Positions 1-47,755 of a stretch of 64,000 nt of DNA are shown here, in pieces. The notes below the pieces were generated by a model. It worked only from the letters and a program-made list of their open reading frames with translations, was not told the DNA's origin and did no database searches. The DNA lies in contig CM041203.1 of NCBI GenBank assembly GCA_023078555.1, positions 4,982,538 to 5,046,537 of the forward strand, given 5' to 3'. Numbering within the stretch: position 1 is the stretch's first letter; each line of letters opens with the position of its first letter. The stretch is from Ulva prolifera. Taxonomy: Eukaryota; Chlorophyta; Ulvophyceae; Ulvales; Ulvaceae. The translations under genes and the position numbers were made by a program.

Positions 1-101
1 CCGGCGACCGCCCATTCCCCTGACGTGCACGCTCTTCACGCATGTGCTCCGACACAAGCGCCAGCCCCGCGCGCTCCAATGCATGCGCCCCGCCGCACGC
101 G

Positions 102-3100
102 TCAGACCATCGGGTAGGGGAACCCCGGATGGCCCTGCGCGATCGCGACCGATCCGGACTGCATCGAGTCCGTCCCGGCGTCGCCATACGGCAGCGTCGA
201 CGCGGAGTTGATCAGCACCTTGTCGTTCAGCGGCAGCGCGCGCACGTGCGACCACAGCGCCGCCGCGCCGACGTCCGTCACCCCCGTCTTGAGGAGCCCG
301 AGGTGTTGGAGTCCGTGCAGGTGGCCGAGCGCCGGCGCGAGCATCGCCGCGCCCTCGTCCCCTAGTGGCACGAAGCTCAGCTCCAACCGCTCGAGGGCAC
401 TGATCGGTTCAAGCGCGGTGGCGAGCCGCGCGGCCATGTCGCCGCCGCTCCACCCGGCCGCGAGCGCGCAGCCCCGCGGCGCCGTGTCGACGAGGCAGAG
501 GGCCGTGAGGCGCGTGAGCGGCGCGAGCTCGCCGACGAACGACGGGATGTCGGCGAGGGCGGTGTGGGAGAAGTCGAGGGAGCGGAGGTCGGTGAGGGCG
601 CCGAGGCCGCGGAAGCAGGAGGTCTCGAAAGAGGAGGGCATCGGGGCGGCGCTGCGGTCGGTGACGGTGACGCGCAGCCGCTGCAGGGCCGCCTGCGCGG
701 AAAAGTCGAGGACGGCGGGGGGGTCGTCGGGGAGGAAGCGATAGCAGCAGGAGAGCTCGAGCCGGGTGAGGCCGCGGATCATCGGCAGAAAACTGTACAA
801 TTTGCTCTGTTTGGTCTTTCCGTGTTGACCCGGCCTGGCATTGAGAGCAGCCCGCTAGGGGTGAGCACGTTCGACCGGTCCGAGGAGGCCAGCCTTGGGC
901 TCCATAAGCCACACAAGCTGCGGCATGCAGAAGACACCATGGGGGGGGGGGGGCTCACGATCTGGACCTCGGAGATGCATGGGAAGTTGGCGAGGTTGCC
1001 GCCGGTGGGGAATGTGAGGATGAGCGCCTGCAGGTGGGACATGCCACGCAGATGCGTGAAGGTGACGCGCCGCGCGTTCTCGTCCATGTCGCAGTCCACG
1101 AGCTCCACGGTGCGCATCGCCGAGAAGATCGCGGCGCCGCTCTGCACCACCGACTTGTACACCTGCATCTGTTGCCCACGCGTGAAAGGGAGGAGCGCGT
1201 TGTGTGGCGTGCGTCGCCTACCCGCAGCCGTGCTTACTGATGCTCAGACCTGCCAGAATGCGTGCTGTGCATGCTGGGAAGGTGACCTCCGCCCTCCCGC
1301 TCGGATCTTGACGACGCATGTGCTGTGTGTGCTGTGCGTGCTGTGCTGCGTGTGCTGTGCTGTGGAGCCGCACCTGCGCCGGCGGCGTGTGGCACTTGAT
1401 GCAGCAGTAGTCCCGCAGCAGCGGCAGGTGGCGCATGAGCGGCACGAAGAGGTGGCGCGACAGGTGCTTCAGCCGGACGGACGTCAGAGTTGTAAGCTGC
1501 GTGATCGGGGTGAGGTCAGGTCTGTGCGGCGGCGCCCCCGACATCGTCAGGGACTCGAGCCGCGGCAGCTCTGAGATCGCGGCCATGAAGCGGTCGATCG
1601 AGCCCGCGTCCACCGTCGTGCACGACCAGCCGAGGAGGTGCAGTTGACGCATGGCGCGCATGCGCGGCGCCTGGTCGGCGAGCGCGGCGTGCATCGGCGC
1701 GACGACGTCCTCCGCGCTCGAGACGTCGAGCGTCGTCAGGGTTTCAAACGGCAGGTGCGGGATGAGCGTGAGCGTCGCGGAGCCGAAGCCGCTGAGCCGC
1801 AGCGACTTGAGAGCTGTGAGCCGGCGGAGGGGGTCCGCGATCGGCTGGAGCAGGGGGACGTCCCCAATGCGCGGCGGCGCTGGCCCGAACGACAGCGACG
1901 CCAGGTTGTCCAGGAAGTTGAGCACCCCCGCGAGCGCCATAGGGTCTGAGCGGCTGCACCCGCTCAGGCCGAGGCGTGTCAGCCCGGTCTTGAGGTTCCG
2001 GCAGCCGCAGATGAGCGACGCAACGGCGCCTGCGGTGAGCTCAGGGTTGTCCGAGAGGTCGAGGGAGGCGAGTTGGGGCAGCGCAAACAGCGCGGCGCGC
2101 ATCGCGGCCGCGTCAACCGCCCGGAGGTGGTTGTTTGCGAGCGACAGGTGCTGGAGGTTGGGGAGGGAGGAGGGGAGGTCGAGGATGTAGGTGGAGATGA
2201 TGGGGTGTGCCGAGCCCGTGCGGCTACACGGCGACGTCAGGGTTCCCGAGAGGTCGAGCGCCGTGAGGGGGGTGGCGCCGCCGTTGTCCGGCGCGCGCGT
2301 CGCACGGCAGTGCAGCGCCACGGTGCGGAACCGCGGTGGCAGGTGGAGCGTGACGGTGAGGTGCAGGTGGCGGAGGATGGCTCCAAGGGGCCCCGGGGAC
2401 AGCGCGCACAGCGCGGCCATGACGGAGCGCGGGGGGAACGCCGGCTGCTCCGCCGGGGTGGCGCCTTCCAACGTGTCCAACCCTGCCTCACGCTGTGGCG
2501 CCACGGTGTGCGACGGCTCGTTGCTCGAAGGCTCCTGGGCCCCCCCGGCGGAGGACTTGGCCGGGGCGGCGGACGACGAGGGCGTCGCGGACGTGTGTGC
2601 GAACGGCGTGATGTGCTGCGGCGGCGACGTGCTGCGCATGCTGCGCTGCGCCGCGTTCGAACGGAACCCCGCCGACAGCGCCGGCGCCGGGCTCGCGGAG
2701 AAGCCCGGGACCGCGCTGCCGCTGCTGCTGCCAGCGGCGCTCATCAGCCGCCGTGTGTCCGCGATCGGGGTGCTGTTGCTGCCGACGCGGCTGCCCGCGA
2801 TGCTCGGCACGAGGCTGCTGCCGCTCAGGCGGCTGCCGCCGCGGAGCGTCTCGGCCGCCGTCTCGTTGCCGGAGGACGTCGCCGTCGTCGAGGCCGGGAA
2901 ATCGGAGCCCGGGGGCAAGAGGGAGGGTGACGCTGAGCAACCGTCGGGGAGCGGGAGGGATGGCTCGCTGTTCGGCACGGAGCGCAGGCGCTCGAGCGGC
3001 GTGCCGGGGATGTCCTTCCGGAAGCTACCGCGCACGATCAGCGCGAGCATGCGTGCGGCGGCGTCAACGGTGTCGCTGTCCTCCAGCGCCGTGGCGGCCT

Positions 3101-3104
3101 GCAT
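102..3104 (-). CDS. Leucine-rich-repeat protein, cassette copy 1 (frameshift in exon 3)
   Basis: Three exons on the minus strand: 3104-1374 (577 codons), 1168-959 (70 codons) and 792-102. The intron 1 donor is CAG|GTGCGG and the acceptor is ACAG|ATG; the intron 2 donor is ATC|GTGAGC and the acceptor is TACAG|TTT. All junctions are phase 0. Residues 1-225 are Ser/Pro/Ala-rich and probably disordered. Residues 226-250 are a short hydrophobic helix-like stretch, weakly F-box-like. From residue 280 to the end about 16 repeats of LxxLxLS type follow (LTALDLSG, LQHLSLAN, LASLDLSD, LRSLDFSH, LERLELSF), as in RNI-type LRR solenoids, which bind proteins. No signal peptide, membrane segment or catalytic domain is visible. 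Exon 3 has 691 nt against 690 in the other three copies: four T instead of three right after the acceptor (789-792). That would shift the frame and lose the last LRRs unless splicing adjusts. It is either a pseudogene in the making or a sequencing indel. Confidence 0.8.
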
Positions 3105-3912
3105 GCGGCATGGGAGGTCGACTGTTGGGGGTACAGAGATGTGCAGACTGTGTATGGAGAACGTTGGGGGGATCCGGACGTCCGGAAGTCATCGTGAGTG
3201 CTGTGAACTCTTCTGAGAGCTGTCACATGAGCATGGTCCCCGTTCGAAGTGGCCCGCGCGAGGGGCAATGGTCTAACGCTTTTACTTTGACCAAGCGCAG
3301 CATGTAGGAACACGTAGCATGTAGGAACACGTCACTTAGTGGAAGGACGCTAAACGTGGCCGCGATGCATGGGCACTACGGCGTGGACGAGACTCAGAGC
3401 TGCATGGATGCTGGCACATGCACAGGGGAGGTTGCTGTAAGCAGCACATCCCGCCAGAGTGGTGGGCTACAAGGACAAAGGCGTTGTCTGGTTAATCGGC
3501 TGGAGTGAGATTTGGTTGTTGCTCCTCGCGTGGACGCCATGATTGTGGTTGTATGTTGGCTGATTTGCGTAGACGCTCTGCCATACAATGGCTCGAGTTG
3601 TTGTAAATTTATTGTGTAAAACGATCAAGGCGGCAAGGCGGGCAGCCTAGCGAACCCTGGATGCAGCAAGTAGCATGCCCGCCAGACTGGTGTGCCACCG
3701 CGCTGCTCTAATGGCATTGGATGCTGTTACGACCAAGACTGGGTTGTGGATGCACATGGCATGCTCCAACGTCAGGATGTGTGTGGCAGATTCTGTGTGA
3801 CATTTGTGGCCACACACTGGCTGCAGCTGACAGGCGCCAAGACCGGATCCACGTTCGCAGGAGGCGATTTGGTGCGGCTTTGGAGTGTTCAGTCGACGTG
3901 CGGCCAGCCCAT
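3105..3912. other. Upstream region of LRR copy 1
   Basis: Presumed 5' flank of the LRR gene. No convincing TATA box or other core promoter motif was found. The same layout recurs at 29749-30650, 14779-16150 and 40835-41700. Around 3466 there is a partial match (CTACAAGGACAAAGGCG) to the head of the retroposon family described below. Confidence 0.4.
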
Positions 3913-4691
3913 CTAGCAGAGATGGGCAGTGCGGTGCTGATGCTCCTGCCGATAACAGGCGCGCAGGAGAAGCCGCCGAGAATCCCTCGCATCTAGGTAG
4001 GATGTTAGCTCGCCCAGCGATGAAGCGTATCTCACGCGCCTATTGTTGTGCGTGTACACGCACATGTGCTCCCACAACTCCTCGCACGCAGCGGTTGAGG
4101 CAACGCACACATCGGTGAAAGGCCGGTTGCAACGCGGCCAGCTAATTCCATACTTGCGGCAAGATATACGAAGAGCATAAGTGTGACTTGAGCCGTCGCG
4201 GAGAAGCAATGCTCCCTGTGTAATGTGAGCTTTACAATGCCATTGCAGTTGCGATGCGGTCACGTGCAGTCTCGTACATAGTGAGTCCAGGAAAGCAGCT
4301 CTGTGAAAGACAAACACGCTTATTTTTGTCACGGAATCGGTATGCACGAACAGCAGCTCTCTTTGCTTCCTAGGCACTGTGGCTATTGCCAGCGTCTTCA
4401 AAGCAGGTCTGACCGCACCTCGAGAACTGCTGCGAGCTTCTCGGCGGGAAGAATCTGCGCTTTTGTGAAGTGAAACCACGCAGTGAATTGGTCCTCAGGC
4501 AGTAGTGAGGCAATGGTGCTGGCTTGGATGGGCGGCCCTTCGGCCAGTCGGCGCAGGACACGGCTCCTCTTGATTTGCTCCGCGGACAATTTTTGACCGA
4601 ATGCAGTGATTTCACTTGAATTGTTGATTCTCTTCATGGTATGTTGAAGGGCAGGCGTAATCACCGCGCTCTTCTTCCACTGTCGAGTCAC
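3913..4691 (-). CDS. Conserved coding-like block of unknown function, cassette 1
   Basis: Two open segments overlap here in different minus-strand frames. 4691-4398 encodes a peptide containing RSRVLRRLAEGPPIQAS and ends at a possible donor CTCGAG|GTGCGG, the same donor type as LRR exon 1. The segment running to 3913 contains LGELTSYLDARDSRRLLLRA. Both frames stay open in the four cassettes although the DNA has diverged. By eye roughly half of the copy 1/copy 4 differences in the first segment are synonymous. They are probably exons of one small gene, but no start or full splice model could be fixed and no family was recognised. Confidence 0.35.
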
Positions 4692-5404
4692 ATTTTCATC
4701 CGGATTCTGACATGTGCTCTACTGTGCAAGCGACGACTTCACACAGCCGTACACAATCGGAAATTTAGTAATAATGTCCTGACGTCCATGGTGGCTGGTA
4801 CTACCGTACACTGTTGTCTGGTGGCAATGTCCTGAGCGTGTGGCCTGCTTCTCAGGTACGTCCCAGCAAGGACAATCGCGTCCGTCCTGCCAACGCTTCT
4901 CAAACATCAATCAGGTATGGGTGCCCAACTGTTCGTTTTGAGGTGGCCAATGCGATGGCGGTGCAAGACGTGCACGCGTGGGTGTGATGATGTGGAACCA
5001 TCTGCCAGCAGTATGGGCCATGGGCAGCGGAAATTGCTTGCGGGCCAATGCGATGGCGGTGCAAGAGCTGGCCCGCCCACGCCAGCCAGCCCCCCTCTCC
5101 CTTACCGCCCGCCAGCCAGCACTGCTATGGCACTGCTATGGCCGGTCAGTAGTGCCTATCGCCTATTGCGCCCGCCCGGTCCGGTCCATCCCACTGATGT
5201 CCCACTTAACCGTTTCTTAACCTACCTGCTTCCTAATGGCTTGTGGGCTTGCCCTGCTTGCCTTGCTTGCCTGTCCTTGATGACAGTCCCATGCATGATC
5301 ACCAGGGGGCCACCTGCTGCCGCCGCCGGAGTCACACCTCATATCCGAATCTCAAAAAGTCACACGGGGTAGCAGAAAAGCTAGGATCTGGTGCTTTGCA
5401 AACA

Positions 5405-5590
5405 GGTGACTGGCACCCGCCCACATGCCACCCCCCACATGTCCACATGCCACCCCCCACATGCCACCCCTGTGCATATGTCCAACAGGTCCAACAGGTC
5501 CAACAGTCCAATGACAAAGAGTCATGCAACAGAGGCATGCGATGCAACAGAGGCCAGAGGCATGCGATGCAACAGAGGCATGCGATGGCT
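5405..5590. repeat. Minisatellites (CCCCACATG and GCAACAGAGGCATGCGAT), cassette 1
   Basis: Two adjoining short tandem repeats: CCACATGCCACCCC-type units with AACAGGTCC triplets, then about three units containing AACAGAGGCATGCGATG. Equivalent loci are at 17575-17690, 32235-32420 and 43190-43310, with different unit numbers. Unit length and spacing are irregular and there are no spacers, so this is not a CRISPR array. Confidence 0.7.
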
Positions 5591-6937
5591 TTGCCACAAG
5601 GCCAAGTTGCTTGCTGCTCAGCTCAGCACTAGCCTGGATACGGTTGGAGATGAGGATCTCTGACTGAGGTGGCCCACAGTCTGAGCTGTGGGCTGAGGTG
5701 CTGTCACATGCCAGCGGATGCTAGATGCTTTAGATGCTTTCGTTCCAAGACATTGCCGTTTTTTCAATGTGTTAACATTTTGCTGCAACAGGATGCCAGC
5801 AGATGCAAGCACTGTCCTGTGGGAGCACTGTCCTTTGGGAACAAGACCATGAGCCAATGTGCCAATGCGAGATGATTGTGCTCATGCAATTGCAAGGCCT
5901 TGCAATTGCATGCTAATGTTGACAATGCTAGCATGATCAGAAGTAAAGTCCCCTTTCTCCTTGTGCTGTACATGCTCAGGCCACAGCTGTTAGACACCAT
6001 GCGGTTGCAGTGCCTTGCATGCTGACCTGCTGGTGATCAGGTCTGCTGGTGATCATGACCCAGAATGTGCATGCCATGCATGTGGGGTGTGCCTCGCCTA
6101 TTTGTCCCACTGTACTGTCCTTTTTCGAGATGTCTTGTCCCGTCTTGTCCTGGCATCGGTGAGGGATGCGAGGTGCTCGCCTCATGGATGAAGCCAACTT
6201 CAGCTGAGCTGCTAGAAGTATGGCTCCACCATGAGTAAAGTGCAGGTAAGGCATGTACACACAGTATAGAATGCATAAGCAACGCTTGCTTAAGCTTATT
6301 AATCGAGGTCCTTTTGAATAGGTAGGCCTTGCAAGGTGATGCTGGACACGGGTAATTCATGGAAAGTGATGATGTGCCTTGCAAAGTGATGCCGGACACG
6401 GGTAATTCATGGAAAGTGCTGATGTGCAATCGACATAACTGTGTTTGGACAGACACGACTGTGTATGCATGTCAGCTAACCAGTCTGGCCAATGGGCTTC
6501 CTGGATGGCCAAAGCTATAGCCTTCGCACGCAGGCCCACGCAGGCCCGCTGATGTGTTGTGTACAGACGTGTCTCAGACAAACAATAAGCAGGGAACCAG
6601 TTCTCTGCTCTTTGTGTGGCGGCGCCAGTGTCAGAGAGGCTGGTGCGCAGCCTGCGAGAAAACAACTCCCAGGTGGCTGCTTTCGAATTCTGAGGCAATG
6701 TAGTTGTGGCTCTGCTGCGCTGTCGCCCGTTGTCGCCCGCCCAAATTGCGCTGCTGCATATGCTATCCCGCTGGTGGCACGCGCGCCATAGCGCCATGCG
6801 CAGAGCTGCCGAATCACAGCCAACTCCGTGAAAAGCACAATTCCCACAGGCTCATTTCATTCCTTGGCTTCTAGCGTTCACTGAGTTTGTCGAGCTCCAC
6901 TCAGCGCAAGCGAATGTAAGACTGTATTGATCTGGCG

Positions 6938-7107
6938 GTGGTATCACTGGAGAAGAAAGAACGCGCAAACTTAACACAACACACAGAACCAATTCTACTG
7001 AGGGAGCATGCACGACATGAGAACCCCATCGTCAAAGTGGTCTGTCCACTCGTGCGTGCGGACCTGATCACGGACCTGCTCATTCAATGCATTGTGTTTT
7101 GTGGGTG
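6938..7107 (+). CDS. Possible conserved exon, cassette 1
   Basis: Open segment containing ILLREHARHENPIVK and VRADLITDLLIQC, repeated in cassettes 2 and 3. It stops being conserved where a minus-strand CA-tailed retroposon begins. In copy 2 the equivalent position is a good donor (GTAAGATG). No family recognised; start and partner exons unknown. Probably a relic of a gene disrupted by the retroposon. Confidence 0.25.
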
Positions 7108-7129
7108 CGATGTGCAGTCTCTGCATGTG

Positions 7130-7340
7130 TACCGTACACACTGTGCTGCCTCATGTGCCTGTGTGGGTGGGTGTGGGTGTGTGGCAACCTGGGATTCCAT
7201 CATTTGTGGGGGGCATTGTGGGTTATGCGCGTGTTGCGTGGATGTGACGGGAGCGATGGTGCGGGCGTGTTGGACTGGGTATATCCTTGATCTGCTTGCT
7301 GCATTCGCGGTGCTACCCGCCTCGCCGCCTTGATCCTTTT
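7130..7340 (-). mobile_element. CA-tailed retroposon, cassette 1 (ancestral insertion)
   Basis: Read on the minus strand it begins near 7337 with a variant of the family head (GGATCAAGGCGGCGAGGCGG then GTAGCACCGC) and ends in a CA-rich tail (plus strand GTGTGGGTGGGTGTGGG). The same insertion is at 21425-21635 and 33945-34145, so it predates duplication of the cassettes. Confidence 0.6.
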
Positions 7341-7737
7341 AACTCTAGTACTGTGCGATCCCTAGGAGATCCGGCTACTAGCTATAGCTCCCGCTAGCAC
7401 AGTATCTATTGGCCGCATCGGCCCGGGCGGCGCCTGGGTCCCGTACCGCCAAGCATGAATGGGGCTCACCGGCCGCAGGCATGGCAGGTTTGTTGGCATC
7501 CTGACTGAGGCCTAGATCTCATACGATGTATCGCTGTGGCACGGTGTGCATGCAGGCGGACGACCTCCAGCGGCTCCTTGGCCATCCGGCCTGATCAGGC
7601 AGCCAGCTAGGTGGGGATGTCGCCACATGTAGAGTAAATAGAAGCTGGGTTTTCTTAGCCGTATCCCTTGAAGGACATTGACGGCTCCGGATGAACATGC
7701 TGGAAGGGATAAAGCCCCTCGGACAATCGCACGCAAT

Positions 7738-7961
7738 CAGTGCTCTACAGTTGGATTTTTTCCTGGCGGGAAAACTGACGGCTCGCTTCGCTCGCCATCG
7801 GGGTTTTGCCACAATTCCCGAAATCTGGCGGGACATCGTCCGGATAGCACAGCGAGACCGCTTCGTGTCGGCGGGAAAACCGACGACTCCCTCGCTGGCC
7901 GTCGGATTTCCGCCATACTTTTCAATTTTTGTTGGGAAACCGATCGGTTTGTAGAGCACTG
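7738..7961. mobile_element. hAT-like MITE, cassette 1
   Basis: 224 bp with 12-bp perfect terminal inverted repeats CAGTGCTCTACA / TGTAGAGCACTG and flanking 8-bp direct repeats CACGCAAT (7730-7737) and CACGCAAC (7962-7969). Cassette 2 has the uninterrupted target at 21767-21774. CAGTG termini and an 8-bp target duplication are the hallmark of hAT transposons. No coding capacity, so non-autonomous. The interior holds two hairpins (7765-7810 and 7870-7914) starting GGCGGGAAAAC. Confidence 0.85.
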
Positions 7962-8559
7962 CACGCAACTCACAGAGCCTCCTCATGTGCTAATGTGTGG
8001 TGGTTTACCTCTTCGGCAAGAGCGGTCCCGTTGACTGGGAGTTGTCAATGTCCAATAGGATACGGCTCAGTAAATTCAGATTCACTTTACGTTGACGGAG
8101 CTGGACAAAGGTTTGCTTGCTTTCTGCAGTGGTACAGCGACAACCTCACATGCATGTCACAACCCGTGCATATGTCTGACTTTGCCGTGCCAGTAATGTT
8201 TCACCTCTCCGCCTGGTGACATTGCCTGGTATACTATAGCTGCTGTGTCAAGCAGGCTGCCACTCCGCTCCAGTGGTATAGCGGGCACATCAGAGCACAC
8301 GCGTACGGCAGCAGACCTACTGCCACAATAGGGCAAGAACCGGGACAGCGGCCTGCGAAGACGAAGACAATATTTGCTCCACCCGAAGGTATGGTGTCCT
8401 ATAGCTGACATGCATGGATACGTCGCTGGTTTGTGCTTGTGGACACATACTCTGCTGAGTTGGTGTAACTCAGCACGTGGAATGCAGGCTGCATGAATCT
8501 GTGAGTACTCTAGAGGGAGGTACGCTCACAGCAGCTGCCCATGTGTTCTTTCACAACTC

Positions 8560-8720
8560 CCCTGCCTAGGGTCTTGTTCTGTCCCGCAAGATCGCAGGCT
8601 CTAGAGCTTGTCTGCCAGCTCTAGAGCTTGTCTGTCCCGCAAGATCGCAGGCTCTAGAGAGATGCCAGTGGCATCTTGTCCTGCAAGATCGCAAGCTCTT
8701 GTCCAGCTGTGAGCACGTGG
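8560..8720. repeat. Variable-number repeat GCAAGATCGCAGGCTCT, cassette 1
   Basis: About three to four units of GCAAGATCGCAGGCTCT with linkers containing AGAGCTTGTCT. Cassette 3 (35380-35405) has one unit and cassette 2 (23045-23105) has two, so copy number differs between otherwise similar cassettes. Confidence 0.65.
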
Positions 8721-11122: not shown

Positions 11123-14100
11123 TCAGATCATCGGGTAGGGGAACCCCGGGTGGCCCTGCGCGATCGCGACCGAACCAGACTGCATCGAGTCCGTCCCGGC
11201 GTCGCCGTACGGCAGCGTCGACGCGGAGTTGATCAGCACCTTGTCGTTCAGCGGCAGCGCGCGCACGTGCGACCACAGCGCCGCCGCGCCGACGTCCGTC
11301 ACCCCCGTCTTGAGCAGCCCGAGGTGCTGGAGGCCGTGCAGGTGGCCGAGTGCCGGCGCGAGCATCGCCGCGCCCTCGTCCCCTAGTGGCACGAAGCTTA
11401 GCTCCAAACGCTCGAGGGCACTGATCGGTTCGAGCGCGGTGGCGAGCCGCGCGGCCATGTCGCCGCCGCTCCACCCGGCCGCGAGCGCACAGCCCCGCGG
11501 CGCCGTGTCGGCGAGGCAGAGGGCCGTGAGGCGCGTGAGCGGCGCGAGCTCGCCGACAAACGACGGGATGTCGGCGAGGGCGGTGTGGGAGAAGTCGAGG
11601 GAGCGGAGGTCGGTGAGGGCGCCAAGGCCGCGGAAGCAGGAGGTCTCAAAGGAGGAGGGCATCGGGGCGGCGCTGCGGTCGGTGACGGTGACGCGCAGCC
11701 GCTGCAGGGCCGCCTGCGCGGAAAAGTCGAGGACGGCGGGGGGGTCGTCGGGGAGGAAACGATAGCAGCAGGAGAGCTCGAGCCGGGTGAGGCCGCGGAT
11801 CATCGGCAGAAACTGCACAATTTGCTCTGTTTGTTCTTTCCGTGTTGACCCGGCCTGGGATTGAGAGCAGCCCGCTGGGGGTTTGACGTTCGACCGGTCC
11901 GAGTAGGCCAGCCTCGGGCCGCATAAACCACACAAGCTGCGGCAGGCAGCAGACACCATGGGGGGGGGGGCGCACGATCTGGACCTCGGAGATGCATGGG
12001 AAGTTGGCGAGATTGCCGCCGGTGGGGAAGGTGAGGATGAGCGCCTGCAGGTGGGACATGCCACGCAGATGCGAGAAGGTGACGCGCCGCGCGTTCTCGT
12101 CCATGTCGCAGTCCACGAGCTCCACGGTGCGCATCGCCGAGAAGATCGCGGCGCCGCTCTGCACCACCGACTTGTACACCTGAATCTGTTGCCCCCGCCC
12201 CTGAGACGTGGCCCCCCGCAGCGGGCCCGCGAGGGCGCACTCGGTGATGGCAGCATGTGTGTGCGCAATGCATGCGAGCGCTTGCTGCCGCCCGGCCGCG
12301 GGTGTCGTCCGAAAAGCCCGGGACCGGGGGGCGTGGTGTCGACTGCCGTGTACGCTGTGGACAGTACACATGGCAAGTGAACAGTAACCCTGCGACGGGG
12401 GGCGCCATGGTTGGATGCACTGACGGCGGTGTGGGGGCTACACCAGGGCTTGACTAAACCGATCGGGTCCCCGATATCACTTGAAAAACGGGCGAAACAC
12501 TGACAGCGAGCCGAGTCGGATTCCCCGCCGCCGAGATGCATATGCCCGGCTCTACACAGCGATCAGTTTCCCAATACATTTCGTCTACATAGGCAAAACC
12601 CCAACGGCGAGCGAAGCAAGCGGCCAAATAGCCCGACCGGAAAAACAATCTAGTGTATACCCCCATAGTCTGCAGCCTACAGCTGACTCGGCCTACTCTG
12701 ACATAGAGCGCACGATCGACAAATTACGGCTCGACAGGCACGTGTTGTGGGCTCGGTGTGTGGCGTGTGCCGCCGCGTGCCAACGCCATCACGTGCCGAG
12801 TGCGCTACGCCCTACTGCGCAACGCTGAAACGCACCGAAGCCGTTACGGGGGCCACAAAACCCACCGCGTCCGCCGCTGCGGCGGCCGATCACTCACACG
12901 AGGCCCGCCAATGTGTTTGCTGATGCTTGGACCCGCAGGAAGGCGTGCTGTGCATGCTGGGAAGGTGACCCCCGCCCCCCCGCTCAGAACATGACCCAGC
13001 ATGTGCTGTGCGTGCTGTGCTGCGTGTGCTGTGCTGAGGAGCCGCACCTGCGCCGGCGGCGTGTGGCACTTGATGCAGCAGTAGTCCCGCAGCAGCGGCA
13101 GGTGGCGCATGAGCGGCACGAACAGGTGGCGCGACAGGTGCTTCAGCCGGATGGAGGTCAGGGTTGTCAGCTGCGTGATCGGGGTGAGGTCAGGTCTGTG
13201 CGGCGGCGCCCCCGACATCGTCAGGGACTCGAGCCGCGGCAGCTCTGAGATCGCGGCCATGAAGCGGTCGATCGAGTGCGCGTCCACTGTCGTGCACGAC
13301 CAGCCGAGGAAATGCAGCTGACGCATGGCGCGCATGCGCGGCGCCTGGTCGGCGAGCGCGGCGTGCATCGGCGCGACGACGTCCTCCGCGCTCGAGACGT
13401 CGAGCGTCGTCAGGGTTTCGAACGGCAGGTGCGGGATGAGCGTGAGCGTCGCGGAGCCGAAGCCGCTGAGCCGCAGCGACTTGAGAGTTGTGAGGCGGCG
13501 GAGGGGGTCCGCGATCGGCTGGAGCAGGGGGACGTCCCCAATGCGCGGCGGCGCTGGCCCGAACGACAGCGACGCCAGGTTGTCCAGGAAGTTGAGCACC
13601 CCCGCGAGCGCCATAGGGTCTGAGCGGCTGCACCCGCTCAGGCCGAGGCGCGTCAGCCCGGTCTTGAGGTTCTGGCAACCGCAGATGAGCGACGCAACGG
13701 TGCCTGCAGTGAGCTCAGGGTTGTCCGAGAGGTCGAGGGAGGCGAGTTGGGGCAGCGCGAACAGCGCGGCGCGCAGCGCAGCCGCGTCGACCGCCCGGAG
13801 GTGGTTGTTTGCGAGCGACAGGTGCTGGAGGTTGCGGAGGGAGGAGGGGAGGTCGAGGACGTAGTTGGAGATGATGGGGTGTGCCGAGCCCGTGCGGCTA
13901 CACGGCGACGTCAGGGTTCCCGAGAGGTCGAGCGCCGTGAGGGGGGTGGCGCCGCCGTAGGCTGGTGCGCGCGTCGCGCGGCATTGCAGCGCCACGGTGC
14001 GGAACCGCGGCGGCAGGTGGAGCGTGATGGTGAGGTGCAGGTGGCGGAGGATGGCTTCAAGGGGCCCCGGGGACAGCGCGCACAGCGCGGCCATGACAGA

Positions 14101-14778
14101 GCGCGGGGGGAACGCCGGCTGCTCCGCTGGGGTGGCGCCTTCCAACGTGTCCAACCCTGCCTCACGCTGTAGCGCCACGGTGTGCGATGGCTCGTTGCTC
14201 GAAGGCTTCTGGGCCCCCCCGGGGGAAGGTTTGGCCGGCGCGGCGGACGACGATGGCGTCGCGGACGTGTGCGCGAATGGCGTCGTGTGCTGCGGCGGCG
14301 ACGTGCTGCGCGTGCTGCGCTGCGCCGCGTTCGAACGGAACCCCGCCGACAGCGCCGGCGCTGGGCTCGCGGAGAAGCCGGGGACCGCGCTGCCGCTGCT
14401 GCTGCCAGCGGCGCTCATCAGCCGCCGCGTGTCCGCGATTGGGTAGCTGTTGCTGCCGGCGCGGCTGCCCGCGATGCTCGGCACGAGGCTGCTGCCGCTC
14501 AGGCGGCTGCCGCCGCGGAGCGTCTCGGCCGCCGCCGCGTTGCCGGAGGACGTCGCCGTCATAGAGGCCGGGAAATCGGAGCCCAGGGGGAAGAGGGAGG
14601 GTGACGCTGAGTGGCCGTCGGGGAGCGGGAGGGATGGCTCGCTGTTTGGCACGGAGCGCAGGCGCTGGAGTGGCGTGCCGGGGATGTCCTTCCGGAAGCT
14701 TCCACGCACGATCAGCGCGAGCATGCGTGCGGCGGCGTCAACGGTGTCGCTGTCCTCCAGCGCCGTGGCGGCCTGCAT
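11123..14778 (-). CDS. Leucine-rich-repeat protein, cassette copy 2
   Basis: Exons 14778-13048, 12185-11976 and 11812-11123 (1731, 210 and 690 nt) give 876 residues with an intact frame. The ATG is placed by agreement with the other copies; the upstream in-frame extension runs through a poly-G/C tract and is not conserved. Intron 1 is 862 bp against 187-205 bp in the other copies and carries a degenerate hAT-like MITE. The exon 2 start codes Ile (ATT) where the others have ATG, which supports this being an internal exon. The intron 2 donor is GTGCGC rather than GTGAGC. Architecture as in copy 1: disordered N-terminus, then about 16 LRRs. It ends in PMI, shared with copy 3. Confidence 0.85.
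12444..12660. mobile_element. Degenerate hAT-like MITE in LRR intron 1, cassette 2
   Basis: Aligns in opposite orientation with 7738-7961: begins CAGGGCTTGACTAAACCG (compare CAGTGCTCTACAAACCG) and contains GGCAAAACCCCAACGGCGAG. The right terminus is eroded, so its end is approximate. It accounts for part of the enlarged intron 1 of the copy 2 LRR gene. Confidence 0.6.
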
Positions 14779-26754: not shown

Positions 26755-27584
26755 TCAGATCATCGGGTAGGGGAACCCCGGGTGGCCCTGCGCGATCGCG
26801 ACCGAACCAGACTGCATCGAGTCCGTCCCGGCGTCGCCGTACGGCAGCGTCGACGCGGAGTTTATCAGCACCTTGTCGTTCAGCGGCAGCGCGCGCACGT
26901 GCGACCACAGCGCCGCCGCGCCGACGTCCGTCACCCCCGTCTTGAGCAGCCCGAGGTGCTGGAGGCCGTGCAGGTGGCCAAGTGCCGGCGCGAGCATCGC
27001 CGCGCCCTCGTCCCCTAGTGGCACGAAGCTTAGCTCCAAACGCTCGAGGGCGCCGAGAGGTTCGAGCGCGGTGGCGAGCCGCGCGGCCATGTCGCCGCCG
27101 CTCCACCCGGCCGCGAGCGCACAGCCCCGCGGCGCCGTGTCGGCGAGGCAGAGGGCCGTGAGGCGCGTGAGCAGCGCGAGCTCGCCGACAAACGACGGGA
27201 TGTCGGCGAGGGCGGTGTGGGAGAAGTCGAGGGAGCGGAGGTCGGTGAGGGCGCCGAGGCCGCGGAAGCAGGAGGTCTCGAAGGAGGAGGGCATCGGGGC
27301 GGCGCTGCGGTCGGTGACGGTGACGCGCAGCCGCTGCAGGGCCGCCTGCGCGGAAAAGTCGAGGACGGCGGGGGGGTCGTCGGGGAGGAAACGATAGCAG
27401 CAGGAGAGCTCGAGCCGGGTGAGGCCGCGGATCATCGGCAGAAACTGTACAATTTGCTCTGTTCGTTCTTTCCGTGTTCACCCGGCCTGGGATTGAGAGC
27501 AGCCCGCTGGGGGTTTGACGTCCTACCGGTCCGAGTAGGCCAGCCTCGGGCCGCATGAACCACACAAGCTGCGGCAGGCAGAAT

Positions 27585-33944: not shown

Positions 33945-34145
33945 CTGTGCTGCCTCATGTGCCTGTGTGGGTGGGTGTGGGTGTGTGGCAACCTGGGAGT
34001 CCATCATTTGTGGGGGGCATTGTGGGTTATGCGCGTGTTGCGTGGATGTGACGGGAGCGATGGCGCGGGCGTGTTGGACTGGGTATGTCCTTGATCTGCT
34101 TGCTGCTTTCGCGGTGCTACCCGCCTCGCCACCTTGATCCTTGTA
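33945..34145 (-). mobile_element. CA-tailed retroposon, cassette 3 (ancestral insertion)
   Basis: Orthologous to 7130-7340. Its head near 34143 reads GTTACAAGGATCAAGG on the minus strand, closer to the family consensus than copy 1. Confidence 0.6.
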
Positions 34146-34541: not shown

Positions 34542-34765
34542 CAGTGCTCTACAGTTGGATTTTTTCCTGGCGGGAAAACTGACGGCTCGCTTCGCTCGCC
34601 ATCGGGGTTTTGCCAAAATTCCCGAAATCTGGCGGGACATCGTCCGGATAGCACAGCGAGACCGCTTCGTGTCGGCGGGAAAACCGACGACTCCCTCGCT
34701 GGCCGTCGGATTTCCGCCATACTTTTCAATTTTTGTTGGGAAACCGATCGGTTTGTAGAGCACTG
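34542..34765. mobile_element. hAT-like MITE, cassette 3
   Basis: Same insertion as 7738-7961, near identical, with the same flanks. Carried along by cassette duplication rather than inserted independently. Confidence 0.85.
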
Positions 34766-37700
34766 CACGCAACTCACAGAGCCTCCTCATGTGCTAATGT
34801 GTGGTGGTTTACCTCTTCGGCAGGTCCCGTGGACTGGGAGTTGTCAATGTCCAATAGGATACGGCTCAGTAAATTCAGATTCACTTTACGTTGACGGAGC
34901 TGGACAAAGGTTTGCTTGCTTTCTGCAGTGGTACAGCGACAACCTCACATGCATGTCACAACCCGTGCATATGTCTGACTTTGCCGTGCCAGTAATGTTT
35001 CACCTCTCCGCCTGGTGACATTGCCTGGTATACTATAGCTGCTGTGTCAAGCAGGCTGCCACTCCGCTCCAGTGGTATAGCGGGCACATCAGAGCACACG
35101 CGTACGGCAGCAGACCTACTGCCACAATAGGGCAAGAACCGGGACAGCGGCCTGCGAAGACGAAGACAATATTTGCTCCACCCGAAGGTATGGTGTCCTA
35201 TAGCTGGCATGCATGGATGCGTCGCTGGTTTGTGCTTGTGGACACATACTCTGCTGAGTTGGTGTAACTCAGCACGTGGAATGCAGGCTGCATGAATCTG
35301 TGAGTACTCTAGAGGGAGGTACGCTCACAGCAGCTGTCCATGTGTTCTTTCACAACGCCCCTGCCCAGGGTCTTGTTCTGTCCTGCAAGATTGCAGGCTC
35401 TTGTCCAGCTGTGAGCACATGGACAGTACATGGAGGGAGTACAGGGAGTACAAGGCTACACAAGATTGGCTACACAATATTGTTTTGAGAGATATCTCTC
35501 AATTTTTTTCGTGATGCTCGATGCTCGAGCTCTGGCACTCCCATTCTCCCACACGACACTCCCACATGGACTGTCATGTTCCTATTGTATGCTATAGCAA
35601 TCCAGTCATGGCGTCTGATTTTCAAGTGAATCTAGATCAAACCCAGCTGGGTTTCCTGAGCTGTATCCTAATTATAAGGTGTAAAGCACCTGGACCCCCC
35701 CCTCCAGACGGCCGTATGCAACTCACAGGGCCTCCTCCTGTGGTGCTGGAAGGTATTGACAAGACATCAACGCCAGCTGCGGCTGTGGCCGCAGAGGCAT
35801 GTCCCGGAAAGCTACCTTATGAATCAATTCAGATGGCTTGCAGACAGCCACTAATCAGCTCTCATAAGAGCTGCAAGCATCTCTGTGCACCGACCGTGAT
35901 GTGGTGCAAGGACAAAGTCGGCGAGGCGGTGTTGTGGAGCGCTTCCAGGGGTGGCGTTGGTGAGCGATGTGAGTTGGCATTTGGTGCGACCGGTGGTTCA
36001 GGCTGCCTGCTCTGCGCAGGCGACCTTCTCAACACACGCACGCGTGAGGATTTGGCGCAGCGATTCCATGTACCTAGCATAACATCGCCAGGATGACACG
36101 CATTTCCGCGTGAGCAGGGCACAGTGCTTCCGTGCAAATGGCATCACCAAGATCCATCATGGACTGTATGTGTCGGTCGCATGGCGCTGCAGCAATCTCA
36201 CCACCTCAGCCGGCCGTGGCAATCAATCGCCTCGTACAGTCAACACACCTTTGCTCGGGCAATGGACTTTCATATCTGCAACGACGCAGCTGCGACAGTA
36301 CTTCAAGTCTTTAAAGTTTACAAACAGTCCTACATGGGCGCTGAATGCATGCAAATCGCTGCGGTACATGCGAGCCCAGCCAGCCTCTGAGGCTCAGCAC
36401 CAGCCACCAAGCACGCACCATTCATTCACACACGAGCCCGTGTTCAGAGCAGCAGCGGCGCAAGCCCACCATGCGGTCACGGGGGCGGCATGTCCCGCGC
36501 GCCACCCTGTCCAAGGGCTGGCCCTCCAGAGTCCAGTGACTCTCTCCATACACATAACCTTACATTCCCTCCCAGCTGAGCTTGCGTGTCGCACACGCCG
36601 CCGTTCCGAACACATGTGTGCTGATCGACGGCGGCCTGCCTGGCCACGCGCTTCGCCGCAGCATCTGGGCGATGCGGAAGCGCGCAGCACGGTGGTCAAA
36701 GTGCACGCTCGCATGTTCGCCGTGATAGCATTCTCAGAGACACTGAGCGGTCACCGCGCCGGGGTCAGGCCGCACTGCCTCCACAAGGCCGGCACACCAC
36801 GCCAACACAAGCAATCACAGTCCCACAGACACCCCCATGGCCACAGCCGCAGCTGCCGGTGTGGCCCCCTCATGCATGTACGCACGCAGGAGCTCACCAG
36901 CGCACACACCCTTCGCCGTTGCAACACACCAGCACACAATCCCTCACAAGGGCACCACTCGTTCAACGCAGGGTTCAAAAACGGTGTGTCTACCAGCGGC
37001 CTCGCCCCGGTGCACCTCGGACCCCCTACACCACTCTCGATGCCAGGCACACAACCTCTCACGACACATCACAACAAACGCGGTCTCATGACCTTCAGTC
37101 CGGCCTCACACAGCTTTATTGTCTCACACCGGCTCCCTGTCACTGCGTGGGGCGCACACCCCTCGCAAATGTTCTTGATGTTTTTTTGTAGCCTTGTTTG
37201 TAATTTTCAGATTTCTGAGCCCCGGCAGCAACGCCCAGCCGGCGCAAAGCCGATCACGGCGCCGCGCCGGGGCGTACACGCATGCATGCCGCAGGCCGCC
37301 TCGCCAGCCCGGCTGCAGGGGATCCGCGGAGCTGACAATACAGTCGTGGACAACGCGACGGCTCCATGCACACGCACACGCGCATGCGCTCGCGGCCCCC
37401 GAGCACGCTGTGGGCAGCGGGCCCCCGTTCACGCCTCGTCTTCCCTCCTCCTTCACACGCACGAGGCCCTGACAAGCCCTCGGTCCTCCATGCCTCGGCC
37501 CACCCATCTGAGCCCCCACCTCCCGCCCTAGACTCCATCCCGCCGACCAGCGCGCACACGACAGGACAGCCGTAGGCCCACGCGCCGCAACCCTAAGCCA
37601 CCCCGAAGCGCGCCGGCACACATCCGTCGGGCACACCAGCCTCGCTGAAGAACCCCCGCACCCCAGCCCACTTCGCGCTGAGCCCAAAATCCGCCATCCT

Positions 37701-37826
37701 TGTGCCCGTTTGGGCTGCGCCGCCGCCGGCGACCGCCCATTCCCCTGACGTGCACGCTCTTCACGCATGTGCTCCGACACAAGCGCCAGCCCCGCGCGCT
37801 CCAATGCATGCGCCCCGCCGCACGCG
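34766..37826. other. Cassette 3 intergenic region up to the LRR gene of cassette 4
   Basis: Nearly identical to 7962-11122. Open frames here mirror those of cassette 1 without independent support. Contains the single-unit version of the GCAAGAT repeat near 35385. Confidence 0.4.
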
Positions 37827-40800
37827 TCAGACCATCGGGTAGGGGAACCCCGGATGGCCCTGCGCGATCGCGACCGATCCGGACTGCATCGAGTCCGTCC
37901 CGGCGTCGCCATACGGCAGCGTCGACGCGGAGTTGATCAGCACCTTGTCGCTCAGCGGCAGCGCGCGCACGTGCGACCACAGCGCCGCCGCGCCGACGTC
38001 CGTCACCCCCGTCTTGAGGAGCCCGAGGTGTTGGAGTCCGTGCAGGTGGCCGAGCGCCGGCGCGAGCATCGCCGCGCCCTCGTCCCCTAGTGGCACGAAG
38101 CTCAGCTCCAACCGCTCGAGGGCACTGATCGGTTCAAGCGCGGTGGCGAGCCGCGCGGCCATGTCGCCGCCGCTCCACCCGGCCGCGAGCGCGCAGCCCC
38201 GCGGCGCCGTGTCGACGAGGCAGAGGGCCGTGAGGCGCGTGAGCGGCGCGAGCTCGCCGACGAACGACGGGATGTCGGCGAGGGCGGTGTGGGAGAAGTC
38301 GAGGGAGCGGAGGTCGGTGAGGGCGCCGAGGCCGCGGAAGCAGGAGGTCTCGAAAGAGGAGGGCATCGGGGCGGCGCTGCGGTCGGTGACGGTGACGCGC
38401 AGCCGCTGCAGGGCCGCCTGCGCGGAAAAGTCGAGGACGGCGGGGGGGTCGTCGGGGAGGAAGCGATAGCAGCAGGAGAGCTCGAGCCGGGTGAGGCCGC
38501 GGATCATCGGCAGAAACTGTACAATTTGCTCTGTTTGGTCTTTCCGTGTTGACCCGGCCTGGCATTGAGAGCAGCCCGCTAGGGGTGAGCACGTTCGACC
38601 GGTCCGAGGAGGCCAGCCTTGGGCTCCATAAGCCACACAAGCTGCGGCATGCAGAAGACACCATGGGGGGGGGGGGGGGGGGGCTCACGATCTGGACCTC
38701 GGAGATGCATGGGAAGTTGGCGAGGTTGCCGCCGGTGGGGAATGTGAGGATGAGCGCCTGCAGGTGGGACATGCCACGCAGATGCGTGAAGGTGACGCGC
38801 CGCGCGTTCTCGTCCATGTCGCAGTCCACGAGCTCCACGGTGCGCATCGCCGAGAAGATCGCGGCGCCGCTCTGCACCACCGACTTGTACACCTGCATCT
38901 GTTGCCCACGCGTGAAAGGGAGGAGCGCGTTGTGTGGCGTGCGTCGCCTACCCGCAGCCGTGCTTACTGATGCTCAGACCTGCCAGAATGCGTGCTGTGC
39001 ATGCTGGGAAGGTGACCTCCGCCCTCCCGCTCGGATCTTGACGACGCATGTGCTGTGTGTGCTGTGCGTGCTGTGCTGCGTGTGCTGTGCTGAGGAGCCG
39101 CACCTGCTCCGGCGGCGTGTGGCACTTGATGCAGCAGTAGTCCCGCAGCAGCGGCAGGTGGCGCATGAGCGGCACGAAGAGGTGGCGCGACAGGTGCTTC
39201 AGCCGGACGGACGTCAGAGTTTTAAGCCGCGTGATCGGGGTGAGGTCAGGGTTATGCGGCGGCGCCCCCGACATCGTCAGGGACTCGAGCCGCGGCAGCT
39301 CTGAGATCGCGGCCATGAAGCGGTCGATCGAGCCCGCGTCCACCGTTGTGCACGACCAGCCGAGGAAGTGCAGTTGACGCATGGCACGCATGCGCGGCGC
39401 CTGGTCGGCGAGCGCGGCGTGCATCGGCGCGACGACGTCCTCTGCGCTCGAGACGTCGAGCGTCGTCAGGGTTTCAAACGGCAGGTGCGGGATGAGCGTG
39501 AGCGTCGCGGAGCCGAAGCCGCTGAGCCGCAGCGACTTGAGAGATGTGAGGCGGCGGAGGGGGTCCGCGATCGGCTGGAGCAGGGGGACGTCCCCAATGC
39601 GCGGCGGCGCTGGCCCGAACGACAGCGACGCCAGGTTGTCCAGGAAGTTGAGCACCCCCGCGAGCGCCATAGGGTCTGAGCGGCTGCACCCGCTCAGGCC
39701 GAGGCACGTCAGCCCGGTCTTGAGGTTCCGGCAGCCGCAGATGAGCGACGCAACGGCGCCTGCGGTGAGCTCAGGGTTGTCCGAGAGGTCGAGGGAGGCC
39801 AGTTGGGGCAGCGCGAACAGCGCGGCGCGCAGCGCGGCCGCGTCACCCGCCCGGAGGTGGTTGTTTGCGAGCGACAGGTGCTGGAGGTTGGGGAGGGAGG
39901 AGGGGAGGTCGAGGATGTAGGTGGAGATGATGGGGTGTGCCGAGCCCGTGCGGCTACACGGCGACGTCAGGGTTCCCGAGAGGTCGAGCGCCGTGAGGGG
40001 GGTGGCGCCGCCGTAGGCCGGTGCGCGCGTCGCGCGGCATTGCAGCGCCACGGTGCGGAACCGCGGCGGCAGGTGGAGCGTGATGGTGAGGTGCAGGTGG
40101 CGGAGGATGGCTTCAAGGGGCCCCGGGGACAGCGCGCACAGCGCGGCCATGACGGAGCGCGGGGGGAACGCCGGCTGCTCCGCCGGGGTGGCGCCTTCCA
40201 ACGTGTCCAACCCTGCCTCACGCTGTGGCGCCACGGTGTGCGACGGCTCGTTGCTCGAAGGCTTCTGGGCCCCCCCGGGGGAAGGTTTGGCCGGCGCGGC
40301 GGACGACGATGGCGTCGCGGACGTGTGTGCGAATGGCGTCGTGTGCTGCGGCGGCGACGTGCTGCGCGTGCTGCGCTGCGCCGCGTTCGAACGGAACCCC
40401 GCCGACAGCGCCGGCGCTGGGCTCGCGGAGAAGCCGGGGACCGCGCTGCCGCTGCTGCTGCCCGCGGCGCTCATCAGCCGCCGTGTGTCCGCGATTGGGT
40501 AGCTGTTGCTGCCGGCGCGGCTGCCCGCGATGCTCGGCACGAGGCTGCTGCCGCTCAGGCGGCTGCCGCCGCGGAGCGTCTCGGCCGCCGCCGCGTTGCC
40601 GGAGGACGTCACCGTCATAGAGGCCGGGAAATCGGAGCCCAGGGGGAAGAGGGAGGGTGACGCTGAGTGGCCGTCGGGGAGCGGGAGGGATGGCTCGCTG
40701 TTTGGCACGGAGCGCAGGCGCTCGAGTGGCGTGCCGGGGATGTCCTTCCGGAAGCTTCCACGCACGATCAGCGCGAGCATGCGTGCGGCGGCGTCAACGG

Positions 40801-40834
40801 TGTCGCTGTCCTCCAGCGCCGTGGCGGCCTGCAT
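37827..40834 (-). CDS. Leucine-rich-repeat protein, cassette copy 4
   Basis: Exons 40834-39104, 38898-38689 and 38516-37827 (1731, 210 and 690 nt), intact, 876 residues. Exons 2-3 and intron 1 are almost identical to copy 1. The N-terminal third of exon 1 matches copy 2 (GSNSYPIADT against GSNSTPIADT in copies 1 and 3). LRR layout as in copy 1. Function is unknown; a protein-interaction scaffold is the only safe inference. Confidence 0.87.
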
Positions 40835-46292: not shown

Positions 46293-47468
46293 CAAGCCAC
46301 ACCTGGTGTCTGATCATAAAGGGAATCCGGATCTACTGAGCCGTATCTTCTTTTAGCGGACATTGACATTGTACAATTCCGGCTGAACGGGCCCACATGC
46401 TGAAGGTGTTTCACATGACAGCTTGGTTGAACCCCCGTCAGATCCTCACAGCTGCATGCAAATCACAGGGGCTCCTCCTGCCAGTGTGGTGCTTGCAGGT
46501 ATTGACAATTGTCAAGTTGACTTGAAGAGATCAAAGCCAGCTGCGGCTGCGGCCGGGGAGGGATGTGCCTGAAGCCTACCACATGAATAAATTCAGGCAG
46601 CTTGCAGAGAGAACTACTTGTACACTAGTATGTAGTACACTACGTATAGTACATGCGCCAACCAGCAATGGCCCAGCTGGCAGTGCGTTGCGAGGAGGAC
46701 CAGGCATAGTGCTTTTTGAGCTCAAAAAGCGGGCTAGTTTGCCTCTCACGGTGCTAGGACAGACAGCGTGGGGCTGCACATGTACAGGGGTGATTCGAAT
46801 TACCTCTGTACACCCCCAACCAGTCCTCCAATTGATCATGGGGTCTGATCACGTGTGAATCACAAGGACAAATTTGTTGACTCGGGGAGAGGGAGAGGGA
46901 GAGGGGGAGGCGGGGTACTGAAGTACTGATGATGTGCTGTCGTCATAATTATAGTTAACTGTGACACAATTGTGCACGTGGCGGCACAGTGGCGGCACAA
47001 CGGCACAGATGGACAGATGGACCGATGGACAGCTCGCTGGGATTTGCAGGCACAGCTCGTGACCATGATTTACTTTACTTTTACCAGGGTCATCATCCCA
47101 GTCATGGTTCTACCGACTTGAGTGGAATCATGACAGTGGAAACATGGCCATGTCCGCTGGCCAGTACTAGTGACTCACAGTGGTGAGGCAGACAGGCATC
47201 CTGAATGGCCCGATTCGAAGGCCCTGGCCTGACGGCTCCGAGGGTGAGTCAGACATGTTGTGTGCAGACAAATCCATCTGATGTAGAATGGTGAGAATCA
47301 AACAAGTGCTGATACCTGGCTTGAGGACAATTCCAGAGATGCAGGTATTGCAGAAGAGTGCACAGGGGCATGAACACAGGTGAACACAGACTCATGTGAA
47401 CCTCTCGTGAACCGAGCTGCTTCAGACAGCGCCACACAGCCACACAGCCACACAGCCGCGGCCCCAGG

Positions 47469-47600
47469 CCCCATACCCAAAAACAAAATAAAGGACTGCC
47501 TGGATGGCTGTGCACACCCACACACAGGCTCTGGCCCCATACCCAAAAACAAAACAAAGGACGGCCTGGACGGCTGTGCACACCCACACACAGGCTCTGG
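47469..47600. repeat. 66-bp tandem duplication
   Basis: Two copies, 47469-47534 and 47535-47600, each starting CCCCATACCCAAAAAC and ending CACACAGGCTCTGG, with four differences or so. Confidence 0.85.
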
Positions 47601-47755
47601 CGGTGTGGTGACAGCTGCAAGGTGGCTTGGCCACTGGCATGAACTCTATCTGTATACAGGTACACCTGTGCATCGCATCCTGCAGTGCTACCTGTCTGAC
47701 GTTGTCCTTGTGGACACACACGCAGCTAGGTACACACAGAGATCCAGGTGTGGGG

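What the first reader, a model, noticed from the sequence alone, without database searches (positions are those of the whole stretch)
1..47740. Four tandem LRR cassettes show a crossed mosaic of relationships
In exons 2-3 and the 3' flank, copy 1 matches copy 4 (PMV ending, identical intron text) and copy 2 matches copy 3 (PMI ending). In the N-terminal part of exon 1 and upstream DNA, copy 1 matches copy 3 (GSNSTPIADT) and copy 2 matches copy 4 (GSNSYPIADT). The switch lies inside exon 1. This pattern needs unequal crossing-over or gene conversion within the LRR coding region, a route to new LRR specificities like that known for plant NLR arrays.
Basis: partly seen in the sequence, partly recalled or inferred. 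Interest (0 to 1): 0.75.

Follow-up and report, generated by a model that had tools for sequence, protein, structure and literature searches.

The report
Recombined algal LRR gene array
Neighbouring copies of a leucine-rich-repeat gene, in what is probably a green alga, have swapped their front and back halves by recombination, a real but ordinary process, at a spot where the genome assembly also seems to hold some stretches twice.

Summary
The crossed mosaic is real. Of 116 two-against-two sites among the four cassettes, 63 group copies 1+3 against 2+4, 51 group 1+4 against 2+3, and 2 group 1+2 against 3+4; they are sharply sorted by position. AU tests accept only 13|24 just upstream and in the exon 1 N-terminus, only 14|23 from intron 1 to the 3' flank, and cannot choose in the LRR part of exon 1. 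Copy 4 is a hybrid: its 3' half is 99.8% identical to copy 1, its 5' end groups with copy 2; a piece of contig C7 carries the same hybrid.

Seven more copies lie left of the window, but a 47-kb block there matches the DNA right of an 850-N gap with 7 substitutions and 84 indels. I read it as the same DNA assembled twice, leaving six distinct genes; read depth could not be checked.

The "new LRR specificities" reading is not supported: no NB-ARC found, pN/pS 0.10-0.42, no detected excess of variation at exposed LRR positions, and most split residues lie in the low-complexity N-terminus. This is ordinary concerted evolution of a tandem family.

The parts
1374..3104 (-). copy 1, exon 1 (577 codons: low-complexity N-terminus, then LRRs); A-type 5' end
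959..1168 (-). copy 1, exon 2 (LRR)
   Evidence: AG before and GT after it in all six distinct copies; length and frame kept
102..791 (-). copy 1, exon 3 (LRR, ends PMV). One extra T at its start (about 789-792) is absent from the ten other C8 copies, its near-identical twin included: probable consensus error
13048..14778 (-). copy 2, exon 1; B-type 5' end
11976..12185 (-). copy 2, exon 2; intron 1 (12186-13047) is 862 bases against 187-205 in the other five copies
11123..11812 (-). copy 2, exon 3 (ends PMI)
28018..29748 (-). copy 3, exon 1; A-type 5' end, 98-100% identical by bin to the copy left of copy 1 (g2)
27621..27830 (-). copy 3, exon 2
26755..27444 (-). copy 3, exon 3 (ends PMI); its end and the 3' flank are near-identical to copy 2
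39104..40834 (-). copy 4, exon 1; B-type 5' end
38689..38898 (-). copy 4, exon 2, no difference from copy 1
37827..38516 (-). copy 4, exon 3 (ends PMV); 99.8% identical to copy 1 over intron 1 to the stop region
1308..2534 (.). switch zone in copy 1 coordinates: mostly 13|24 sites to the right, 14|23 sites to the left, mixed in between
3333..8602 (.). spacer upstream of copy 1, 94.8% identical to 30072-35401 upstream of copy 3
36540..39057 (.). tract of copy 4 (3' flank to intron 1) near-identical to copy 1: 99.7-100% in 9 of the 10 bins that start at 36540 to 38790, 98% in the other

Best explanation
The four cassettes are part of a tandem array of an 876-residue LRR-only gene family, probably in a green alga. 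The array probably holds six distinct genes (g1, g2, c1, c2, c3, c4) and undergoes concerted evolution: repeated unequal crossing-over and gene conversion between neighbours, with break zones in and next to the LRR coding region, cut the genes into 5' and 3' halves with different histories. SHOWN: two 5' types (A: g1, g2, c1, c3; B: c2, c4); a near-identical 3' tract shared by c1 and c4; near-identical tracts shared by g2 and c3 and, at the end of exon 3 and in the 3' flank, by c2 and c3; pN/pS well under 1. INFERRED: that g2 = c3 and c1(3') = c4(3') come from one block event of about 12 kb which placed [g2 + 3' half of c1] beside the 5' half of an older terminal gene, making c4 a hybrid; that exchange here mainly keeps copies alike rather than creating new binding specificities; that the 59-kb offset repeat is the same DNA assembled twice.
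For: Informative sites sorted by position. AU tests by segment: 13|24 in the upstream (300 columns) and N-terminal (571) segments, 14|23 in intron 1-exon 3 (2025) and the 3' flank (579). Inner-fragment test on six copies, 453 polymorphic sites: c1-c4 share 129 in a row (c1 positions 1327 to 240), c2-c3 73, g2-c3 136; 0 of 2000 shuffles as good; PHI-like test 0 of 1000. Identity by segment (5', LRR part of exon 1, 3' half, 3' flank): c1-c4 0.895, 0.978, 0.998, 1.000; g2-c3 0.991, 1.000, 0.985, 0.873. Block [g2...c1 3' half] against [c3...c4 3' half]: 14.8 kb at 97.0%, with 0-2 mismatches in 6 of 15 kb bins. Six-copy trees: c2+c4 together at 100/100 in the 5' segment, c1+c4 at 100/100 in the 3' segment. 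pN/pS 0.10-0.43. Hybrid c4 also on C7.
Against: The one-block reading is imperfect: c3 differs from g2 by 10-34 mismatches per kb in the five bins 4974-4978 kb, so further exchanges are needed, and tract ends do not coincide. Crossing-over and conversion cannot be told apart from one genome. The LRR part of exon 1 supports no one tree. Five sites upstream go against the 13|24 pattern. Many other pairs also share significant tracts (11 of 15 pairs at global P 0.0, 13 of 15 below 0.05), so the four-copy cross is one slice of a more tangled history. No reads, expression data or second strain were available, and six as the true copy number is an inference.
Confidence: 0.82

Rival explanations
1. 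One reading: an NLR-like diversifying array in which exchange inside the LRR region is selected because it yields new recognition specificities.
For: Tandem LRR array with demonstrated exchange; 29 of 347 residues of the exon 1 LRR part vary among six copies; 7 of 45 variable residues at putative exposed positions against 4.5 expected, in the predicted direction but P 0.16.
Against: pN/pS 0.10-0.36 in the LRR-coding parts; variation is densest in the low-complexity N-terminus (25 of 190 residues against 29 of 347 and 11 of 229); only LRR families in the Pfam scan of copy 4. For contrast, Arabidopsis RPP8 LRRs have Ka:Ks 0.75-0.97 (PMC6771003, passages).
Confidence: 0.08
2. The mosaic inside the window is made by the assembler: reads of different copies were joined or polished into one another.
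For: The surroundings look poorly assembled: 850-N gap, substitution-poor 47-kb repeat across it, indel-rich tail of the left sub-contig that passes from a c3-like to a g2-like path near 4954.4 kb, an identical fragment on C7 beside a single N, and C44.
Against: The junctions that matter occur twice: copies 1-3 in the left block, part of copy 3 on C44, hybrid copy 4 on C7, with 7, 0 and 1 substitutions. c1 and c4 differ by 10% in the 5' segment, so long reads should separate them. The support is not independent if the pieces share reads, and window about 34.6-37.5 kb is not doubled.
Confidence: 0.08
3. The 59-kb offset repeat, the C7 copy and C44 are real, very recent duplications, so the array has about eleven genes and is still expanding. 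(This rival concerns copy number and does not exclude the best explanation.)
For: 11 gene places on C8 by tblastn; the left sub-contig tail (c3, then g2, then c1) is also what an unequal crossover between c3 and g2 would give.
Against: Only 7 substitutions against 84 indel events over about 47 kb, 4 of the 7 within about 640 bases of the right block's first base and 2 in a TG repeat. Each of the three redundant stretches has one end at N; the tool notes that withheld stretches also read N, so these need not all be gaps. An assembly gap between copies is a stated mark of false duplication (PMC9516828, passages).
Confidence: 0.18

Closest known systems
Arabidopsis RPP8 NLR family (PMC6771003; passages read)
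   Same: Tandem LRR-encoding paralogues with exchange between loci, and different trees for different parts of the gene.
   Different: RPP8 genes are NLRs with Ka:Ks 0.75-0.97 in the LRR, and SNPs shared between paralogues are about twice as dense in the exon that encodes it; here no NB-ARC was found and LRR parts are at pN/pS 0.10-0.36.
SH3 NBS-LRR cluster of coffee (PMC3113787; search listing with start of abstract only)
   Same: Clustered LRR genes; the paper mentions gene conversion 22 times by the listing's count.
   Different: NBS-LRR genes of a land plant.
Chlorophyte NLRs such as those of Chromochloris zofingiensis (PMC7145615; abstract and passages)
   Same: LRR genes in clusters in a green alga.
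   Different: They have an NB domain; none was found in the genes here. This genome has 33 listed NB-ARC matches elsewhere.
False (homotype) duplications in assemblies (PMC9516828; passages)
   Same: Near-identical neighbours separated by a gap, with differences like sequencing errors, as at 4906-4965 / 4966-5024 kb of C8.
   Different: Read depth, a main test there, was not available here.

Membership tests
Tandem gene family under concerted evolution | several homologous genes in head-to-tail order | tested here: met
   four in the window, all - strand; 11 gene places on C8 by tblastn, about six distinct
Tandem gene family under concerted evolution | exchange tracts between paralogues / conflicting trees | tested here: met
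Tandem gene family under concerted evolution | paralogues within a species more alike than orthologues between species | not testable with these tools
   no relative's genome available ('It has no relatives here')
Plant-type NLR (NB-LRR) | NB-ARC domain | tested here: not met
   Pfam scan of the spliced copy 4 protein to E 1 lists only LRR families; exon 1 ORFs of all four copies and exon 3 ORFs of copies 1 and 2 to E 0.1 list LRR families and one weak DUF6931; nearest NB-ARC listed is C8:5232714, about 186 kb right of the window
Plant-type NLR (NB-LRR) | C-terminal LRR domain | tested here: met
   LRR_4 over its cut-off; 13 strict LxxLxL motifs in copy 4
Plant-type NLR (NB-LRR) | diversifying selection at exposed LRR residues | tested here: inconclusive
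   no sign found: pN/pS 0.10-0.36 in LRR parts, 7 of 45 variable residues at exposed x positions, 4.5 expected, P 0.16; low power, no population data
False duplication in an assembly (59-kb offset repeat) | near-identical blocks separated by an assembly gap | tested here: met
   850 N between blocks; 7 substitutions, 84 indel events; N could also mark a withheld stretch
False duplication in an assembly (59-kb offset repeat) | reduced read depth in each block | not testable with these tools
   no reads

The most novel reading that the evidence does not exclude
The redundancy is biological: this LRR-only locus is an active rearrangement hotspot that has just duplicated about 59 kb in tandem and sent an inverted copy of at least 17 kb (probably about 21 kb: c4 plus its flank) to another contig, while exchange around the exon 1/intron 1 boundary keeps re-pairing two promoter/N-terminus types with a conserved LRR body, so that expression class and LRR body are shuffled like cassettes.
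Probability: 0.1. Interest if true: 0.55.

Novelty: new member of a known kind. Interest (0 to 1): 0.28.

Why it matters
It is a clean, testable example of exchange between tandem LRR genes outside the NLR families where I know it best (recalled), and it separates two claims that are often merged: that LRR paralogues recombine (shown here) and that recombination is favoured for new specificities (not supported here). It also warns that copy number at this locus in this assembly is probably inflated about twofold.

Tried and rejected
Paper searches on LRR genes, exchange and algal genomes (listings capped at 15 of 66, 12 of 341, 10 of 14 and 7 of 7) showed no title on an LRR-only array of a green alga; that is not proof that none is in print. 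That it is a green alga is inferred from chlorophyll a-b binding proteins; the nearest CP29 chains in the PDB are 8bd3 and 9hd7; that 8bd3 is from Chlorella ohadii is recalled.

Considered and rejected: copies as haplotypes of one locus (they differ by 4-14% in the 5' segment and the window has no N). A frameshift in copy 1 as a real pseudogene mark: the extra T is absent from its twin and from the nine other C8 copies. Frameshifts in the right-block copy of g2: its twin in the left block is intact, so I used the left one; the first dN/dS run, with the right-block g2, gave inflated values for pairs with g2 and is superseded. Rows left out: the twin copies, g6, C7 (frame also broken) and C44. 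C44 was dropped from the gene alignment, where it aligned badly. Searches use the right-block g2.
Full report
WHAT IS THERE. The window is G000:C8:4982538-5046537 of an 88.9-Mb genome in 44 contigs. The genome has many chlorophyll a/b-binding protein exons (38 matches). One translated stretch matches LHCII-type chains of the PDB and another matches CP29 chains, so the host is most likely a green alga (inference); I did not name it. Four genes of one family lie on the - strand. Each is modelled with three exons; borders are GT/AG and in frame in all six distinct copies except that copy 1 has an extra T at the start of exon 3. Read past that T, each gives an 876-residue protein. The extra T is missing from copy 1's near-identical twin and from the nine other C8 copies, so it is probably a consensus error. 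About 190 residues of Ser/Ala/Pro-rich sequence are followed by LRRs: LRR_4 at E 2.4e-11 and 13 strict LxxLxL motifs in copy 4.

THE OBSERVATION. In the alignment of the four cassettes, 116 sites split the copies two against two: 63 13|24, 51 14|23, 2 12|34. They are sorted by place: upstream 36 to 5, and exon 1 N-terminus 22 to 0, for 13|24; rest of exon 1 mixed (4, 3, 1); intron 1 to 3' flank 43 to 1 for 14|23. The five contrary upstream sites lie at c1 positions 3344-3399, the outer edge of the alignment. With the two 12|34 sites left out, a one-breakpoint model fits 106 of 114 sites; 0 of 20,000 shuffles reached that, their best being 82. AU tests on separate segments accept only 13|24 upstream (c1 3105-3340, so without those five sites) and in N-terminal exon 1, cannot choose in the LRR part of exon 1 (p 0.165, 0.626, 0.499), and accept only 14|23 from intron 1 on. 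On the whole alignment both 13|24 (0.873) and 14|23 (0.127) survive, as expected of a mixture. The switch is a zone of about 1.2 kb from mid exon 1 to the start of intron 1.

THE WHOLE ARRAY. A tblastn search with the copy 1 exon 1 ORF gives 21 matches in the genome, which fall into 11 gene places on C8 (4902-5023 kb), one on C7 and one on the short contig C44, some split by frameshifts. An 850-N run lies at C8:4964977-4965826. The block left of it (4906.5-4953.9 kb) aligns with the block right of it at an offset of about 59.3 kb with 7 substitutions and 84 indel events, mostly single bases. Four of the 7 substitutions lie within about 640 bases of the right block's first base, two in the TG repeat, one elsewhere. 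C44 from 5001 on equals the copy 3 region with 0 substitutions and 7 indels; C44 1-5000 reads N. C7:6398001-6411417 equals copy 4 and its right flank, inverted, with 1 substitution and 32 gap bases in 13.4 kb; it ends beside a single N at 6411418. The C7 likeness goes on to window 54.5 kb (99%). It probably reaches about 58.9 kb, because C7 carries a relative of the 58.4-58.9 kb piece at the expected distance (inferred). No match at E 1e-100 or better was found for 61.5-63.9 kb apart from the window itself. The tail of the left sub-contig (4954-4965 kb) passes from a c3-like to a g2-like and then a c1/c4-like sequence, with many gap bases around 4955-4958 kb. These look like the same DNA assembled more than once; an assembly gap between copies is one of the stated marks of false duplication (PMC9516828, passages). 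Two cautions: the tool says that withheld stretches also read N, and a real, very recent duplication is not excluded, since no read depth was available. Merged, the array would be g1, g2, c1, c2, c3, c4.

This bears on the finding in two ways. It warns against the copy number, and it doubles the evidence for the mosaic: the left block holds copies 1 to 3 again, and C7 holds the hybrid copy 4 again (3' half 0.998 to c1; 5' segment 0.930 to c2 and 0.887 to c1). If these pieces come from the same reads, the support is not independent.

HOW IT CAME ABOUT. Painting the array in 300-base bins shows stretches of 99.7-100% identity with changing partners: g2 with c3 over most of the gene and parts of the spacer; c1 with c4 from the 3' flank to intron 1; c2 with c3 at the end of the gene; and parts of the spacers g1-g2 and c1-c2 with each other. 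The block [g2 ... 3' half of c1] matches [c3 ... 3' half of c4] over 14.8 kb at 97.0%. So c1 = c4 (3' half) and g2 = c3 may be one event, which left c4 as a hybrid of a c1-like 3' half and an older 5' half of type B. That step is inferred. Five bins with 10-34 mismatches per kb inside the block need later exchanges. Crossing-over and conversion cannot be told apart here.

FUNCTION AND SELECTION. Pooled over the four window copies, pN/pS is 0.42 in codons 1-190, 0.36 in the rest of exon 1, 0.20 in exon 2 and 0.10 in exon 3; over six copies 0.43, 0.33, 0.18 and 0.11 (point values without a significance test). The genes therefore look like functional proteins under constraint. Of 62 variable residues among the four copies, 47 are not two-against-two, 11 are 13|24 and 4 are 14|23; nine of the 11 lie in the first 191 residues. 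Exchange has thus moved little LRR variation; what it re-pairs is mainly the promoter and N-terminus with a nearly constant LRR body. Positions flanking the LRR beta-strand leucines show no clear excess of variation (7 of 45, 4.5 expected, P 0.16; 13 strict motifs only, low power). RPP8, a plant NLR family with exchange, has Ka:Ks 0.75-0.97 in its LRR (PMC6771003, passages). No NB-ARC was found in the copy 4 protein, although the genome has 33 listed NB-ARC matches elsewhere. The likely role, a scaffold or recognition protein built on an LRR solenoid, is inference from the domain alone; sequence matches in the PDB are weak and mostly to LRR proteins (12 distinct sequences at E 0.01 or better, best 2.6e-06).

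VERDICT. Observation confirmed, recombination supported, diversification reading not supported. It is an ordinary case of concerted evolution in a tandem family, with a probable assembly problem beside it. Interest 0.28.

Noticed in passing
window 24222-25103: TG dinucleotide repeat of 882 bases at the border between the copy 2 spacer and the copy 3 3' flank; a similar repeat lies on C7 at about 6412.9-6414.2 kb, about 1.5 kb beyond the single N.
   Followed up: partly
window 52490-62491: A second, older tandem duplication: four pieces repeat at a spacing of about 5.9-6.9 kb (69-83% identity). The ORFs at 52378-52998 and 57874-58929 (+) share 119 of 174 aligned residues and had no Pfam match at E 0.1.
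   Followed up: partly
window 19613-20537 and 48203-48730: An inverted repeat (arms 82.6% identical) with a relative at 48.2-48.7 kb; bins at 19.5-20.3 kb also match C7 at 81-85%. Looks like a dispersed mobile element.
   Followed up: no
G000:C7:6411418: Single N exactly where likeness to C8 ends, so perhaps a scaffold join; the inverted copy of the array's right end on C7 may be a misplaced sub-contig.
   Followed up: partly
G000:C4:7455203-7511893: NB-ARC matches come in pairs with equal scores at an offset of 35342 bases (7465261/7500603 and 7475994/7511336), and C1:4819382 and C6:36034 also have equal scores: recent duplication of NB-ARC genes or more assembly redundancy.
   Followed up: no
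window 12186-13047: Copy 2 intron 1 is 862 bases long against 187-205 in the other five distinct copies, and bins at 12290 and 12540 match no other copy.
   Followed up: no
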